The notes beneath the pieces are model-generated. The model made no database searches. It was not told where the DNA came from and saw only the letters and a list, made by a program, of their open reading frames with translations. From Acinetobacter sp. ANC 4204 (GTDB taxonomy: Bacteria > Pseudomonadota > Gammaproteobacteria > Pseudomonadales > Moraxellaceae), in the NCBI RefSeq assembly GCF_002135205.1, contig NZ_NEFZ01000003.1, positions 62,001 through 126,000 on the forward strand: a stretch of 64,000 nt of DNA, read 5' to 3'. Below, one piece after another: positions 31,592 through 39,626 of the stretch (within the stretch, counting starts at the first letter, position 1; each line of letters opens with the position of its first letter). Position numbers and translations under genes: made by a program.

Positions 31592-34021
31592 TTACTTCAT
31601 CTGCTTTTGTACGGATTTATACGTCTCATAATAAGTCGACTCACTAAAGAAGTCATCATGTTCAAGCTTCAAACCTTGCAATGATTTTTCTGTCAATTGA
31701 CCTTTTAAGTCATCGGCAAATGCTTTAGCAAAAATTTGTGCCGCCTGCGCTAAGTCTGCTTTTTGCTCTGGCTCAATCTCATAGCTATCGGTAAATTTTT
31801 CTTGATAGACATGTGCAAAGAGTGCCTGCTTGGTCTTGTATTTTTTAACCAAGTCTTTCCATTGCTGACTTTCTTGTGCTTCGTCTAAGGCATCTTCAAC
31901 AATATTCGCGACACGTTCGCCCAATTCGTCAAAGTCTTGTTGGTGCTGTAGGACATGTTTTTGACGTAACTGATTCAAACGTTTCAGTGCTGAACCTTTC
32001 GGCTCTGCAATATCCATGAACTCATAGGCATACACTTCTGAAATTTCATTGATGGTCGCTGGGCTATAATAACGAATATATTCTGGACGTTGCGCAGCGA
32101 ATACCAAGGCAAAGGTTGCTTGATATGCTTTTAACTCTGAATGATGACGTGCATAGCTTTGTTTGGAAACTTGCTGGTAATAATCAGAAATGTCTTTAGG
32201 TTGCTCTGCCGTATCTGACAATGTTGTCTCAACACTTTGAGATGCGCTAGCGTCTGCACCTAATGGTCCAAGCATGCCTTTCACTACGTTTTCCAGTAAT
32301 GAACCTTTAGACACTTCCTCAATAGATTTGGCGTTTTTTAAAGCTTGACGGTCAATCGCTGTGGCATTGCCATAATTAAACACCTGATTGGTACTCTTAA
32401 TTTGTAGCTTACCAATTTGCTCATCGCTGATTACAATGTTGTAATCCATATTTTGCGCACGGCCTTTTTGGTCGAGTGCAACATCCATCACAAATGGTGA
32501 ACGCTCTGTTCCCAATTGTGCCATGATCGGTGTAATTTCAGCCTGATGTTTTTGCCAAAGTTGTTTAAAACCTTGCGCATCGACCAGTTGCTCAGTTTGA
32601 TATGCCGTAAAGAGTGGTTTTAGCTCTTCCAAAACATTGATCGCGGCTTGACCAAAACTCTCTGTATCTACCGATTGAGTCACGGCTTTAGGCGCAAGCA
32701 CATCAATATCTTGATAGTCCCGACATGCCGTCACTTTGCCGATAGGAATATTCTTAGTGTTGATGAGCGCATCACAAGCTTCTTCAGAGAGAGTATTAGA
32801 TGATGCAGAAGCAGAGACTTCTTCTGTATCCTCTGTCTCATCCTCTGCATAGGCAACATCAGCAGCCGCATCTGTAACCGCATCACTGACAGCATCTACC
32901 GCGATGCCCTGCTCATCCCCATCTGTATGTGAACCTAAGTGATGTATTTGTTGATTCACTAAACTCGTGACACGCTCAAGTGAGGCATAAGCAGGGTCTT
33001 CAGTTGCTACACCTGCGGCAGCCATCTCCGCTTCTTTCGCTGCTTGCATCGCATCATCTGCTGCGCTTGGCGTTTTTTCAGCGTCTTGAATCAGACGCTC
33101 GGCATCAAAAGCTTGTATCTGCTGGGTATAGTGCAGTTTGTTGACGTATTCAAATAAGCCCAATTGTACTTGTGCTGTTTCTAAGTCGCCGATATAGCGA
33201 ATTTTCTTACTCAATCCTGCATCTTTTTCTTGTTTACTCAAACCCACACTATGCACCTGATTTGGCTCTGCCAATGCATAAGGTAAGGCATTCATTTGCT
33301 TTAAATATTCTGCAAATTTCTTAAAATCAATATGGCCAAATGCATCTTTATGCTTGGAAAAGTCAATGTATGCAAAACGATCCTGACTTTCACGGTTCAC
33401 CATGAATGGCATAAAGGCAAAATAGTTGGTGTAAAACTTATAGTCATTAAAATCAACCACCATCGGCAACTGCGCTTGCACTTGTAAGGTTGGCTTTTGA
33501 TAACTCAACTGCAACGTCAGTGCAGCCAGTTTTTGACGAAAATGTACGGAACCGTTGTAACTAAACTGCAAATCATTGAGTAAATTCACCAATGATTCTG
33601 CAATTTGCGTGCGAGCTGAACGTGACTCACCCGTGCTATACAGTGATGCATACGGATTTTGTTCACGCGCAAGCGCATCATACAAGGCCTGCTTCTCTTT
33701 AGCTGTAAATGGAATCTTTTGATTTTTTAATAATTGATCTAATTGCTTTTTCAACTCTGGATCTAAGTTCGTTGCATTTGATTGAGCATTGGACTTGGAA
33801 TTTGACTGAGCCCTAGGCTTTGACTCATTAAAATTAAAATCCGACTGAATCGAGAACTGCCCTTTAAAATCATAACTGGCATTTTCAAACATGGCATTTA
33901 GACCATGCGTGGCTTGTTGCCCCAACTGCTGATCTGAAGAGGCATTGGATTTAATGACATGCTGAGTACACCCACTGATACTCAAACCCAATAAACAAAG
34001 TGTTATATATTTTAAGCGCAT
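31592..34021 (-). CDS. Very large lipoprotein, unknown function
   Basis: 809 residues. A signal peptide ends in lipobox LSISGC with the acylated Cys at about position 18, so it is anchored to a membrane. The Ser/Asn-rich linker at 60-85 is followed by a mostly alpha-helical protein. An acidic, low-complexity stretch at about 385-415 is full of Ala, Asp and Glu. The N-terminal half has amphipathic beta-type segments (FSYNGSVHFRQKLAALTLQL). I recognise no domain. It is a single-gene unit. It could be a cell-envelope structural protein; no enzyme motif is seen. Confidence 0.7.
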   Translation of the reverse strand: MRLKYITLCLLGLSISGCTQHVIKSNASSDQQLGQQATHGLNAMFENASYDFKGQFSIQSDFNFNESKPRAQSNSKSNAQSNATNLDPELKKQLDQLLKNQKIPFTAKEKQALYDALAREQNPYASLYSTGESRSARTQIAESLVNLLNDLQFSYNGSVHFRQKLAALTLQLSYQKPTLQVQAQLPMVVDFNDYKFYTNYFAFMPFMVNRESQDRFAYIDFSKHKDAFGHIDFKKFAEYLKQMNALPYALAEPNQVHSVGLSKQEKDAGLSKKIRYIGDLETAQVQLGLFEYVNKLHYTQQIQAFDAERLIQDAEKTPSAADDAMQAAKEAEMAAAGVATEDPAYASLERVTSLVNQQIHHLGSHTDGDEQGIAVDAVSDAVTDAAADVAYAEDETEDTEEVSASASSNTLSEEACDALINTKNIPIGKVTACRDYQDIDVLAPKAVTQSVDTESFGQAAINVLEELKPLFTAYQTEQLVDAQGFKQLWQKHQAEITPIMAQLGTERSPFVMDVALDQKGRAQNMDYNIVISDEQIGKLQIKSTNQVFNYGNATAIDRQALKNAKSIEEVSKGSLLENVVKGMLGPLGADASASQSVETTLSDTAEQPKDISDYYQQVSKQSYARHHSELKAYQATFALVFAAQRPEYIRYYSPATINEISEVYAYEFMDIAEPKGSALKRLNQLRQKHVLQHQQDFDELGERVANIVEDALDEAQESQQWKDLVKKYKTKQALFAHVYQEKFTDSYEIEPEQKADLAQAAQIFAKAFADDLKGQLTEKSLQGLKLEHDDFFSESTYYETYKSVQKQMK

Positions 34022-36076: not shown

Positions 36077-36141
36077 GCTTAAAATTGAAGATGTCATCTT
36101 GTAAATGCATTGCATAACATCAGATGACCTTCATCAAAATT

Positions 36142-36178
36142 AAAAAAATCCAACTATCTGATGATAGTTGGATTTTTT
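36142..36178. terminator. Bidirectional terminator after the acyl-CoA dehydrogenase gene
   Basis: ATCCAACTATC (36148-36158) and GATAGTTGGAT (36163-36173), loop TGAT, with A7 before and T6 after. It also ends the minus-strand secretion operon. Confidence 0.9.
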
Positions 36179-36198
36179 ATTTAAGTCGTGGAATGAGC

Positions 36199-36801
36199 TT
36201 ACTTTACAGTGACCGTAATACTGCCAGTATTTGCAGCACCAATCGCTGAGGTTTTGATACTTTCAACAGTGTTTTTGAAGCCTTTGGTATTGACTGAAGC
36301 ATCAACAGAACCTGAATTAAAGGCTAAATTTGCAGCAGCGTAATTGCTCAATGTGCTATTCAGCTCTTGATAATATTCAGTATCCACACCTGCTGCCACA
36401 GAAGCTTCAACACCTGAGTCTAATTGTTGATAATGATGACCATCCATGTTTTTCCAAGCACTCATGGAGGCCTCCAGATCACCACTAAATGCACCAGAAC
36501 TCACTTGATACACACTACCTTGTTCAAGGGTGATCTCACCCGTATTTACAGCACCAATTGCTGAGGTTTCAATTGTGCCCACGTCATTGATTCCACCCGC
36601 CGTATTCACCGTTGCGTCTATGCTATTGGTATTAATAGCTAAATTTAACGCACTTCCATTTTCAGCATTTTGAGCTAAAAGTGCTAGGGTGTCTTGCAAA
36701 CCAGTATCCACCTGTACATGGTGTCCTCCTCCAGCCAATGCAGCACTTGATAAGAAAGCTACAGATACAGATAAGGCAATTGTTTTGATAGTCTTATTCA
36801 T
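36199..36801 (-). CDS. Secreted two-repeat protein, candidate fibre subunit (HfaD/curlin-like role)
   Basis: 200 residues from the ATG at 36801, which has AAGGAAAT upstream. A signal peptide is cleaved after SSAALA at about residue 23. The mature part holds two homologous repeats of about 41 residues, at 52-92 and 157-197. Each ends in TSAIGA-[VA]-NTG and carries an Asn/Ser/Thr-rich strand pattern (DATVNTAG and DASVNTKG). Only Ser, Thr, Asn, Ala, Gly and small hydrophobics dominate, as in amyloid-forming secreted subunits. It lies downstream of a CsgG/HfaB-type exporter gene with an 85-bp gap. Function as a fibre subunit is inference; I know no exact family name. Confidence 0.65.
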   Translation of the reverse strand: MNKTIKTIALSVSVAFLSSAALAGGGHHVQVDTGLQDTLALLAQNAENGSALNLAINTNSIDATVNTAGGINDVGTIETSAIGAVNTGEITLEQGSVYQVSSGAFSGDLEASMSAWKNMDGHHYQQLDSGVEASVAAGVDTEYYQELNSTLSNYAAANLAFNSGSVDASVNTKGFKNTVESIKTSAIGAANTGSITVTVK

Positions 36802-36886
36802 CGTTATTTCCTTATACACTCTAAAGTACTCCTCGCTAAGTACTTCTTTTTTATATAATAGGAGCGAGCCTATCTTTTCAATTCAG

Positions 36887-38068
36887 TTAATCTCGATTCG
36901 TTGTTGACCAATAATTTTCAGTGACTGCTGGATTGATATCCCAAAGTAGTTGAGGAGCTTCCTCTGTTTTCACATCGTCTTTCTCTACAGACTTAGACGG
37001 CATAGCTTTTTTCTTGCTGATATATTTAATTAAATCCTGCTTGCTCATTTCTGGTTCTGCATCAGGATCCTGAATCAACTCAGACTCTCTTTGTTTCGGA
37101 GGACGTGTATCTTTACTGGGTGTATCCGTTAATTTATTTTTTTCATTGGGCGCTGCCCCCTTGTATGGTTGGGCATCCAATAGACTCTTATTGGGGTTTT
37201 CAATCGTGCTGTTTTGCTGACTTTCTTTATATTTATGCAGTGCAACCGAACTGCGCGTTAAATTGAGACTGCCAAATTCAGGGGGAATCGCCACTCTGCA
37301 ACTCTCAAATGTACTCGGGGGAATGACCTGGCTTAACAGCTCAAAGGTTGCCAAATTCAGCATTTGGCGTAATGCAAAATTTGTTGCCTCACGCTCACCT
37401 TTGCCGACTTGAATATTCAGTAAAGTGTGTCCAGCAAATCGACCTGCATTCAGACCATAATCCTGTGAAACGATTTGCTTTTGCAGAGAGACGTTTGCAA
37501 CCACTCGACTGCTACGGGTATCGGTAAGAGACAAGTCCAGACCAACCATTATTCGGGTTTGGCTATAGCTAGGCCCAACACCACCGACTTGCATGTCAAA
37601 ACCCCCGCCAGGAATAAAATCCAAACTATTGATACTCCCTGTGACGTAATAATCTGAAGCGTGAATATTTCGAGGATCTCGAATCCCCCACTTTGCTTCA
37701 CTTTCAATAATCCGCGGATCACGTCGGTTTAACAGGCTAACACCAGCTTGGAACAGGGCTGATTGCACCATATCCCCTGCGCCTTGGGTCACCATTTTTC
37801 CACTTCCGCCATTGGTGACCACGTCTTTCCCTGTCTGGTCTAAAATGGCCCCTACAGAAAAATTAACATCGGTGCGTAATTGTCCTTTTAAACAAGACAA
37901 AGCCATATCAAAAGGGGTAAAGATATCTGTAATTGGAGGACCTTGTACTAAAGTGACAGGCTGTTTATTAGATACTGCGAGTCCCGTACAACCTGTTAGC
38001 ACTTGACTTAAGGCGACCAACACGCTCGCTGAAGATATTAATCTTCTATTGATTTGAAAACTCAGCAT
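36887..38068 (-). CDS. CsgG/HfaB-family outer-membrane secretion lipoprotein
   Basis: 393 residues. The signal peptide ends in lipobox VLTGC (Cys about residue 27). Residues about 45-255 follow the CsgG pattern: DMVQSALFQAGVSLLNRRDP, the DYYVTGSINSLDF strand, a Gly-rich loop, IMVGLDLSLTDTRSSRVV, and a C-terminal NFALRQMLNLATFELL. CsgG forms a nonameric outer-membrane channel that exports curli subunits; HfaB does the same for Caulobacter holdfast anchor proteins. Residues 270-393 are an unusual Lys/Glu/Pro-rich tail. It overlaps the upstream gene by 7 bp and has a GGGGGT ribosome site. No CsgE or CsgF gene is nearby. Confidence 0.8.
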   Translation of the reverse strand: MLSFQINRRLISSASVLVALSQVLTGCTGLAVSNKQPVTLVQGPPITDIFTPFDMALSCLKGQLRTDVNFSVGAILDQTGKDVVTNGGSGKMVTQGAGDMVQSALFQAGVSLLNRRDPRIIESEAKWGIRDPRNIHASDYYVTGSINSLDFIPGGGFDMQVGGVGPSYSQTRIMVGLDLSLTDTRSSRVVANVSLQKQIVSQDYGLNAGRFAGHTLLNIQVGKGEREATNFALRQMLNLATFELLSQVIPPSTFESCRVAIPPEFGSLNLTRSSVALHKYKESQQNSTIENPNKSLLDAQPYKGAAPNEKNKLTDTPSKDTRPPKQRESELIQDPDAEPEMSKQDLIKYISKKKAMPSKSVEKDDVKTEEAPQLLWDINPAVTENYWSTTNRD

Positions 38069-38439
38069 AATGAGACCCCCTGTTGGGTGCTCAAATTAGG
38101 GCATGCTGGATTATTTTGATTTGTGGTTGAATTCACTGCTGCTTCATTCACAGCATCACTAGAAATATCAACGCTGTTCTCAGAACCATTCACATTAACG
38201 TTACTGGTAGATGAATTTACGGTCCCAATTGAGCTGGTCGATGTGCTATAAATTGTGGTTTTTCCAAGACCTTCATAATAATCTGAGTCCATGAGCTCAA
38301 TTAAATTCGCTTGGACTAAATTCTCTGTAGAACGTACTGTAGAAGCTTTCCAACGCGTACTCCATTCATCGGACGTTGCATAGGCATTATTCAAGCAAAA
38401 TAAAAAACATAATCCTATATTAATTACTACTATTTTCAT
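38062..38439 (-). CDS. Small secreted protein, candidate HfaA-like fibre component
   Basis: 125 residues with a signal peptide cleaved after NNAYA (about residue 21). The C-terminal half is rich in Ser, Asn, Thr and Val. It contains TSTSSIGTVNSST (66-78), which resembles the TSAIGAVNTG motif of the secreted protein two genes downstream, followed by VNVNGSENSVDISSDAVNEA. Gene order small secreted protein, CsgG-like channel, second secreted protein is that of hfaA-hfaB-hfaD. It overlaps the channel gene by 7 bp, so they form one operon. Identity as HfaA is inference. Confidence 0.55.
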   Translation of the reverse strand: MKIVVINIGLCFLFCLNNAYATSDEWSTRWKASTVRSTENLVQANLIELMDSDYYEGLGKTTIYSTSTSSIGTVNSSTSNVNVNGSENSVDISSDAVNEAAVNSTTNQNNPACPNLSTQQGVSLC

Positions 38440-39582
38440 GAACTTAACCTTCCCTATTAACCCATATTATTTTCACACTCTCTGCTTCATAAAATTAAAC
38501 TCAATACAAATTAAAACCCATTAAACCACATATAAAATTAAAATAACCCAAACAGAATAATAAAATAACAGACAGCCAAAAAAAACCAACCCATCCCATT
38601 GTTTTAATTTTTATTGACTGAAACTTGGTATGCTATTTAAAATGTAAATAAAAATTTCAAAATAAATTAAAAACATATTAATAAAAAATCAAAAACATAA
38701 ATAAAAGAAGAAAACATATTATGTAAACATTATTTATAATTCTATATTTTTATCCAATTAAACGGTTTAAATTCAGTCATTAAATAAAATACTCAGCAGA
38801 ATTTCTCGCATCTCTAGTATCCTACTCAGCTCACATTTTGCGCTAAAAAGCTAAAACTCAACTGCTGTATAGCCAAGAGCCATGTACTGCGCTTTTCCAC
38901 TTGCACTCATTTGATCTTGCTATGAAGACGCATCATTGCTTGAATTCATGATCCATTTCCTTTACTCAGTAAAGAAAATAAAATTCTTATCGTCTTGATC
39001 ATTGCTATCCAACCTAAAGCATTATTCAAAATAATAAATATAAAACACAAGAACAAATAAAAAAGCAAAAATAAATACTTAAATTAAAAACTTTTATATT
39101 AAAACACAGCCATAAAATAAACCATATAACCATTTATTTGCATTTTCTTTTACTTCATAAGCTTAAAAAATAAATATTAAAAAAATAAAACCATTAAAAA
39201 TAAAATTCAGAATAAAAATTAAATTTAAAAAAATAAATTAGACTCATTTATAAAGCTATTTCAGGCTGAATTTAAACATTATTACGCTTTATATAAAATA
39301 GAATGCTTTGCCTTTCTTATGGTTTCCACACTAGATAAAAAGTGTGAACATACATGGTTTGATGTACTCAAACGATGTGATGATGACCTGTCTCTAGGTA
39401 CGCTCCGTAGGTAGGTCTTAAAGCTGTTATCGAATGGCGTAAAATGAGATATTTTTTAGAGAGAAGGTTAAAGTGACAGACTATTTCTTCTTTGTAAGGC
39501 CGACAAAATCATGCACTCAGGCTAAATTGATCATAAAAGATGAGATCATTTGTAACAGGGTCGTGAATCAACCGATCTGTAC
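38440..39582. other. 1.1-kb extremely AT-rich, gene-poor region upstream of the secretion operon
   Basis: No intact gene. From about 38500 to 38800 and 38990 to 39300 the sequence is mostly A and T, unlike the rest of the window. It must hold the promoter of the minus-strand operon. It also contains a broken ORF (38851-38949). Around 39390-39415 it has a direct repeat TAGGTA-CGCTCCG-TAGGTA in less AT-rich DNA that may be a remnant of an older gene or element. Such DNA is a typical target of H-NS-like silencing; that is inference. Confidence 0.6.
38851..38949 (-). pseudogene. Short ORF with an internal amber codon
   Basis: From the ATG at 38949, with AAAGGAA correctly spaced, the frame reads MNSSNDASS, then TAG, then QDQMSASGKAQYMALGYTAV and two more residues before a final TAG. 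The part after the amber looks like coding sequence. Either it is a decayed gene start or two unrelated tiny ORFs. No homologue is recognised. Confidence 0.35.
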
Positions 39583-39609
39583 AAAAAAGACTGCAACTGC
39601 AGTCTTTTT
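39583..39609 (-). terminator. Terminator after hchA
   Basis: AAAAAGACTGCA (39584-39595) and TGCAGTCTTTTT (39598-39609) pair over 12 bp around a two-base AC centre. On the minus strand the stem is followed by T. Confidence 0.8.
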
Positions 39610-39626
39610 AATTGAATATTATTGAT

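What the first reader, a model, noticed from the sequence alone, without database searches (positions are those of the whole stretch)
36199..38439. HfaABD/curli-like secretion locus in Acinetobacter
Three co-directional genes encode a small secreted Ser/Asn-rich protein, a CsgG/HfaB-type outer-membrane lipoprotein, and a second secreted protein with two internal repeats. The order is that of the Caulobacter holdfast-anchor genes hfaA-hfaB-hfaD. There is no CsgE, CsgF or classical curlin. This looks like a compact functional-amyloid or adhesive-fibre exporter. CsgG-type loci of this form are not what I would expect in Acinetobacter.
Basis: partly seen in the sequence, partly recalled or inferred. 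Interest (0 to 1): 0.85.

Follow-up and report, generated by a model that had tools for sequence, protein, structure and literature searches.

The report
Three-gene curli-like exporter in Acinetobacter
Thirty of 119 sampled Acinetobacter genomes carry a three-gene set, a relative of the CsgG/HfaB amyloid-export channels plus two small proteins that are predicted to be secreted, which would likely build an adhesive, amyloid-like surface structure without the curli helper proteins.

Summary
On the minus strand, three co-directional genes encode A (125 aa, Ser/Thr/Asn-rich), B (393 aa, CsgG-domain lipoprotein) and D (200 aa, two 41-residue repeats, 61% identical).

B passes Pfam CsgG (46 bits, cut-off 20.8). 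In a tree it groups with HfaB-type proteins rather than curli CsgG, as a clade of its own; it scores 100 bits on NCBIfam's HfaB model (cut-off 300). A, B and D occur in the same 30 of 119 Acinetobacter genomes, and in the same order in three other taxa. CsgE, CsgF and curlin give no match in any of the 119.

"Not expected in Acinetobacter" is wrong: the module is common there. Homology of A to HfaA is weak; of D to HfaD not detectable.

I read it as a minimal, HfaABD-like secretion module: B the predicted pore, D the main surface subunit, A its partner. Its eyelet loop is Gly/Lys-rich, without CsgG's Tyr/Asn/Phe. Secretion, amyloid and adhesion are untested. My searches listed no paper describing the operon; a CsgG-type gene of unknown type is reported to matter for A. 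baumannii matrix. New variant of a known kind.

The parts
38062..38439 (-). Gene A: 125 aa, signal peptide ending ..NAYA (read from the sequence), conserved W..RW..LxQA[N/D]LI...DYY block, SSIGTVNSSTSNVNVNG block, Cys113 and C-terminal Cys125
   Evidence: same position as hfaA; found in the same 30 of 119 genomes as B
36887..38068 (-). Gene B: 393 aa lipoprotein (lipobox LTGC27), CsgG domain residues 65-248, about 130-residue low-complexity C-terminal tail ending in NP...ENYWS...
   Evidence: PF03783 46 bits; HfaB NF037935 100 bits, cut-off 300; alignment A3; tree
36199..36801 (-). Gene D: 200 aa, signal peptide (read from the sequence), two 41-residue repeats, C-terminal TSAIGA.NTGSITVTVK
   Evidence: found in the same 30 of 119 genomes
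36526..36648 (-). D repeat 1 (residues 52-92)
   Evidence: 25 of 41 residues identical to repeat 2
36211..36333 (-). D repeat 2 (residues 157-197)
37766..37840 (-). B eyelet-loop segment, residues 77-101 (DQTGKDVVTNGGSGKMVTQGAGDMV), in place of the CsgG Tyr66/Asn70/Phe71 loop
   Evidence: alignment of 14 type-1 proteins with 10 curli CsgG and 8 HfaB-type rows; CsgG residues from PMC7304575 and PDB chain 3x2r_D
38440..39626 (-). AT-rich upstream region (27% GC against 42% for the window), presumed promoter and silencing region
36141..36185 (.). Inverted repeat with A/T runs between D and the convergent acyl-CoA dehydrogenase gene, a likely shared terminator
   Evidence: read from the sequence; not scored by a tool

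Best explanation
This is a three-gene module in which B is predicted to form a CsgG/HfaB-type outer-membrane pore through which the signal-peptide-bearing proteins A and D would pass, likely to assemble on the cell surface into an adhesive, amyloid-like structure. Steps shown: the three genes, B's domain, D's repeats and the gene order; their co-occurrence in the same genomes; B's placement with HfaB-type proteins; the lack of CsgE, CsgF and curlin matches. Steps inferred: B is an outer-membrane oligomer (from CsgG homology and the lipobox); A and D are exported by Sec and then by B (from signal peptides and gene linkage); D is the main subunit, its two repeats forming stacked beta-arches; A is the partner that seats, nucleates or tethers D at the pore (from its hfaA-like position and conserved N-terminal block); B's long low-complexity tail gathers or docks something in the periplasm, perhaps taking the place of CsgE.
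For: CsgG domain in B. B groups with 8 HfaB-type rows apart from 10 curli CsgG and 8 other Acinetobacter CsgG-domain proteins (95/94 starred). A, B and D are in exactly the same 30 of 119 genomes. A and B overlap by 7 bases in 28 of 29 Acinetobacter/Moraxellaceae loci. The trio sits in different neighbourhoods with no other gene kept throughout, so it looks complete in itself. The trio recurs in Methylophilales, Nitratireductor and a Pseudomonadales MAG. No CsgE/CsgF/curlin match in 119 genomes. D's repeats and their repeated strand pattern in a low-confidence model. In Caulobacter, HfaA and HfaD need HfaB to reach the outer membrane and HfaA forms SDS-resistant multimers (PMC6707917, passages).
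Against: No direct evidence of secretion, amyloid or adhesion. AlphaFold models of A and D are poor (mean pLDDT 52 and 42). D is not detectably related to HfaD or curlin. B has no significant sequence match to solved CsgG. The Trp ending of B's tail is shared by the Acinetobacter rows but not seen in L104 or L106, so it is no general feature of the clade. With two repeats D is short for a curlin-like subunit (curli repeat number recalled).
Confidence: 0.55

Rival explanations
1. The trio is a polysaccharide anchor, working as HfaABD does: B places A and D on the surface and these tether an exopolysaccharide rather than forming a fibre of their own.
For: Same gene order as hfaABD and B is nearest HfaB-type proteins; HfaABD anchors holdfast polysaccharide (PMC6707917).
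Against: The obvious candidate, PNAG, does not track with it: PgaC is in 18 of 30 carriers and 67 of 89 non-carriers. No gene beyond the trio is kept in every neighbourhood compared. hfs genes and other polysaccharides were not searched.
Confidence: 0.25
2. B has an envelope role like other CsgG-domain lipoproteins of the genus, and A and D are periplasmic partners that are never secreted.
For: Other CsgG-domain types occur in the genus beside lipoproteins; CsgG Pfam hits include many non-curli paralogs (PMC3521004 passages).
Against: B is apart from those types in the tree; A and D show no lipobox and, unlike the neighbours in the six loci inspected, D has repeats and A is Ser/Thr/Asn-rich.
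Confidence: 0.15
3. The grouping is chance: low-complexity proteins beside an unrelated CsgG-like lipoprotein.
For: A and D match no curated family.
Against: Co-occurrence in the same 30 genomes and conserved order in other orders of bacteria.
Confidence: 0.03

Closest known systems
Caulobacter HfaABD holdfast-anchor complex
   Same: A-B-D order; B nearest HfaB-type proteins in the tree; small first protein and larger third protein; no CsgE or CsgF match in the genus
   Different: B below the HfaB equivalog cut-off and in its own clade; D 200 aa against 316 to about 490 aa for the HfaD-position ORFs read, and not detectably homologous; A only weakly alignable to HfaA; eyelet loop about two residues longer than in HfaB; holdfast synthesis genes not looked for
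Curli (CsgBAC/CsgDEFG, type VIII secretion)
   Same: CsgG-domain outer-membrane lipoprotein; repeat-bearing protein with a signal peptide
   Different: No CsgE, CsgF or curlin-repeat match in 119 genus genomes; the Tyr/Asn/Phe eyelet replaced by a Gly/Lys loop; long C-terminal tail on B
Acinetobacter type-2 CsgG trio (CsgG of about 225 aa, with lipoproteins of about 135 and 225 aa; two loci inspected)
   Same: CsgG domain, same genus, three genes
   Different: Partners are lipoproteins, not repeat-bearing exported proteins; far apart in the tree

Membership tests
CsgG domain family (PF03783) | Match above Pfam gathering score | tested here: met
   46 bits, cut-off 20.8
HfaABD | HfaB equivalog NF037935 above cut-off | tested here: not met
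   100.3 bits, cut-off 300; 11 of 398 Pseudomonadota genomes have a match over the cut-off, up to 427.6 bits
HfaABD | B branches with HfaB rather than curli CsgG | tested here: met
   95/94 starred.
HfaABD | hfaA-hfaB-hfaD gene order | tested here: met
HfaABD | A homologous to HfaA | tested here: inconclusive
   hhalign score 22.05, reached by 0 of 200 column-shuffled decoys (maximum 19.0), but hhalign probability only 5.5%; 16.2% over 31 columns with the Acinetobacter-only profile
HfaABD | D homologous to HfaD | tested here: not met
   hhalign P 0.017 over 21 columns; the D-repeat HMM finds D of L106 (E 3e-7) and L105 (E 7e-7), L104 only at 0.05, and no real HfaD or HfaA in the printed part of the list, where the best shuffled decoy stands at 0.15
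HfaABD | Linked or present holdfast synthesis (hfs) genes | not tested
   no hfs search was run
HfaABD | Anchors a polysaccharide | not testable with these tools
   needs mutants
Curli system | CsgE, CsgF and curlin repeats | tested here: not met
   0 of 119 genomes each at E <= 0.01; E. coli control positive
Curli system | Tyr66/Asn70/Phe71 eyelet rings in CsgG | tested here: not met
   14 of 14 type-1 proteins have a Gly/Lys loop; the Phe is in 10 of 10 curli CsgG; residue roles from PMC7304575. The loop alignment is uncertain because lengths differ
Functional amyloid | Dye-binding, SDS-resistant cross-beta fibres | not testable with these tools
   bench work

The most novel reading that the evidence does not exclude
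A third, minimal branch of nucleation-dependent (type VIII-like) secretion: one pore with a glycine/lysine eyelet and a built-in periplasmic tail does the work of CsgG plus CsgE, and the small A protein does the work of CsgF plus CsgB, so that three genes suffice to build an amyloid adhesin; the module moves between bacterial orders as a unit.
Probability: 0.3. Interest if true: 0.72.

Novelty: new variant of a known kind. Interest (0 to 1): 0.47.

Why it matters
A review says that Acinetobacter lacks a complete curli machinery and that curli fibres have not been reported there (PMC10038080, passages). A compact export module in about a quarter of sampled species would be an overlooked candidate matrix component in that genus. 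It would also give a small natural system for asking what a CsgG-type pore minimally needs to secrete amyloid-like subunits.

Tried and rejected
A as a CsgF homologue: A sits directly upstream of B as csgF does of csgG, but hhalign of the A family against 10 CsgF sequences scored 9.1, reached by 165 of 200 shuffled decoys; rejected. HfaA against CsgF: 14.1, reached by 12 of 200; not supported.

D as an HfaD homologue: looked likely by eye, not supported by profile or HMM. A against D: hhalign P 0.0055 over 20 columns around the shared SxIGxVN motif; suggestive only.

PNAG anchoring: no positive association with PgaC.

PDB sequence match for B: none at E up to 1 (single sequence) and no CsgG at E up to 10 (profile). 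Structure models of A and D were too poor for a fold search, so none was run.

Which CsgG the A. baumannii reports mean could not be settled. Benomar et al. 2021 is not held. The other paper the review cites for it, PMC6591400, holds neither CsgG nor HfaB in its main text (term search), and the paper cited by PMC8446060 for it, PMC7910304, holds neither. None of the 33 named loci is A. baumannii, but that scan needs one of two exact peptides.

Full report
What is there. On the minus strand of the window, gene A (38439..38062), gene B (38068..36887) and gene D (36801..36199) follow one another; A and B overlap by seven bases and B and D are 85 bases apart. D most likely starts at the ATG at 36801, behind AGGAAA, giving 200 aa; the GTG at 36819 is the mechanical ORF start. 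An inverted repeat with flanking A and T runs separates D from a convergent acyl-CoA dehydrogenase gene (read).

B. It has a lipobox (Cys27 invariant in the 15 rows), a CsgG domain over residues 65-248 (PF03783, E 4.9e-12) and a C-terminal tail of about 130 residues. The tail's end (NP...ENYW) is conserved in the Acinetobacter rows but not seen in L104 or L106; L105 has another Trp-containing end. NCBIfam's HfaB model gives 100.3 bits against a cut-off of 300. In a 40-row tree, B of the window and 10 other Acinetobacter loci, with three from other taxa (Methylophilales L104, Nitratireductor L105, Pseudomonadales MAG L106), forms one clade (99/99). It groups with 8 HfaB-type rows (95/94) apart from 10 curli CsgG and 8 other Acinetobacter CsgG-domain proteins.

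Three kinds of CsgG-domain protein in the genus. The CsgG model matches in 75 of 119 genomes. Besides the window's type (30 of 119) there is a type of about 225 aa with two lipoprotein neighbours and one of about 330 aa in a four-gene cluster (six loci inspected). In those six, no neighbour resembles A or D.

A and D. A carries a signal peptide, a conserved block W...[WY]...xQA[ND]LI...YY and an [IV]G..N.. block (24-row alignment); two cysteines, one C-terminal, are invariant in 17 Acinetobacter rows but not beyond. D carries a signal peptide and two repeats (25 of 41 identical; 0 of 1000 shuffles as good). The AlphaFold model of D has mean pLDDT 42 but gives each repeat the same four-strand pattern, 105 residues apart; A is mostly without structure at pLDDT 52. 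These models carry little weight.

One system. A, B and D are each found in 30 of 119 genus genomes, and the 30 are the same. Of 33 named loci found by pattern scan, 29 are Acinetobacter or Moraxellaceae, two of them from one genome, and four lie outside. A, B and D stand in this order in the 29 and in L104-L106; in L107 (Brucella oryzae) the B frame is interrupted, and I left it out. In a sample of 398 Pseudomonadota genomes the A family is found only in the window's own. Neighbours differ: of 30 loci compared, 18 share one neighbourhood, four (the window's included) share a second, and the rest differ or are cut short. No other gene accompanies the trio throughout. The 150 bases upstream of A are 14-29% GC in the 30 loci compared, against 42% for the window, which would suit silencing by H-NS (inference).

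Comparison with curli. CsgE, CsgF and the curlin repeat give 0 of 119 matches at E <= 0.01, with the E. coli control found each time. The CsgG eyelet is lined by Tyr66, Asn70 and Phe71 (PMC7304575, passages; positions checked on 3x2r_D). The Phe is present in 10 of 10 curli CsgG here; the 14 type-1 proteins have T[NDE]GG.GK there instead, one or two residues shorter. The loop alignment is uncertain because lengths differ, but no aromatic residue is aligned with the Phe. I predict a more open, positively lined eyelet.

Comparison with HfaABD. Order and B's tree position agree. The A family aligns to HfaA along 78 columns with a score that 0 of 200 decoys reach, but with low hhalign probability (5.5%). 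D is not detectably related to HfaD, although its repeat HMM finds D of L106 and L105 (E 3e-7 and 7e-7). So 'it works like HfaABD' is a fair claim; 'it is HfaABD' is not.

How it likely works. A and D cross the inner membrane by Sec. B, lipidated, would oligomerise into the outer-membrane pore. Without CsgE, B's tail could gather subunits. A would sit at the pore mouth as nucleator or tether; D, with its beta-arch repeats, would stack on it. Export and assembly are inferred. A polysaccharide-anchoring role is the main rival; it gains nothing from PgaC, present in 18 of 30 carriers and 67 of 89 non-carriers, but other polysaccharides were not tested.

What is in print. Nine literature searches (listings, up to 20 papers each) showed no description of the three-gene operon. 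PMC8446060 (a passage, outline and reference list) mentions H-NS repression of a CsgG/HfaB-family protein in A. baumannii. The review PMC10038080 (passages) cites a csgG whose loss thins the A. baumannii matrix and says curli machinery is incomplete. The primary paper, Benomar et al. 2021, is not held. Whether that csgG is the window's type or another cannot be told. The curli survey PMC3521004 does not mention Acinetobacter or HfaB in its main text (term search). The library holds open-licence papers only.

Noticed in passing
window 38440-39626: 1.2 kb of 27% GC without an ORF of 60 aa upstream of A; in the upstream alignment of related loci a TTACA block and a TGTGATTTAAT block look conserved, possible promoter or regulator sites.
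   Followed up: partly
G037 contigs C4 and C9 (L032): In one Acinetobacter genome A and D on contig C4 flank only the 3' end of B, while contig C9 begins inside a B (residues 183-393) followed by a second D: two copies, one with most of B gone, or an assembly break.
   Followed up: no
window 31592-34021: 809-aa lipoprotein-like protein with no Pfam or NCBIfam family at cut-off; it stays beside the acyl-CoA dehydrogenase gene near the trio in the four loci that share the window's neighbourhood.
   Followed up: no
L108, L111, L113, L116: CsgG-domain protein of about 330 aa in a four-gene cluster with two lipoproteins (about 134 and 200 aa) and a 450-470-aa protein, in Acinetobacter.
   Followed up: partly
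L045 (G429), L049 (G411): Some genomes of another class of the phylum carry two or three HfaB copies over the cut-off, two of them adjacent in G429.
   Followed up: no
L100 / L028: In A. lwoffii VE196-10 the B frame is interrupted near its start while A and D are open, suggesting recent loss of the pore.
   Followed up: no
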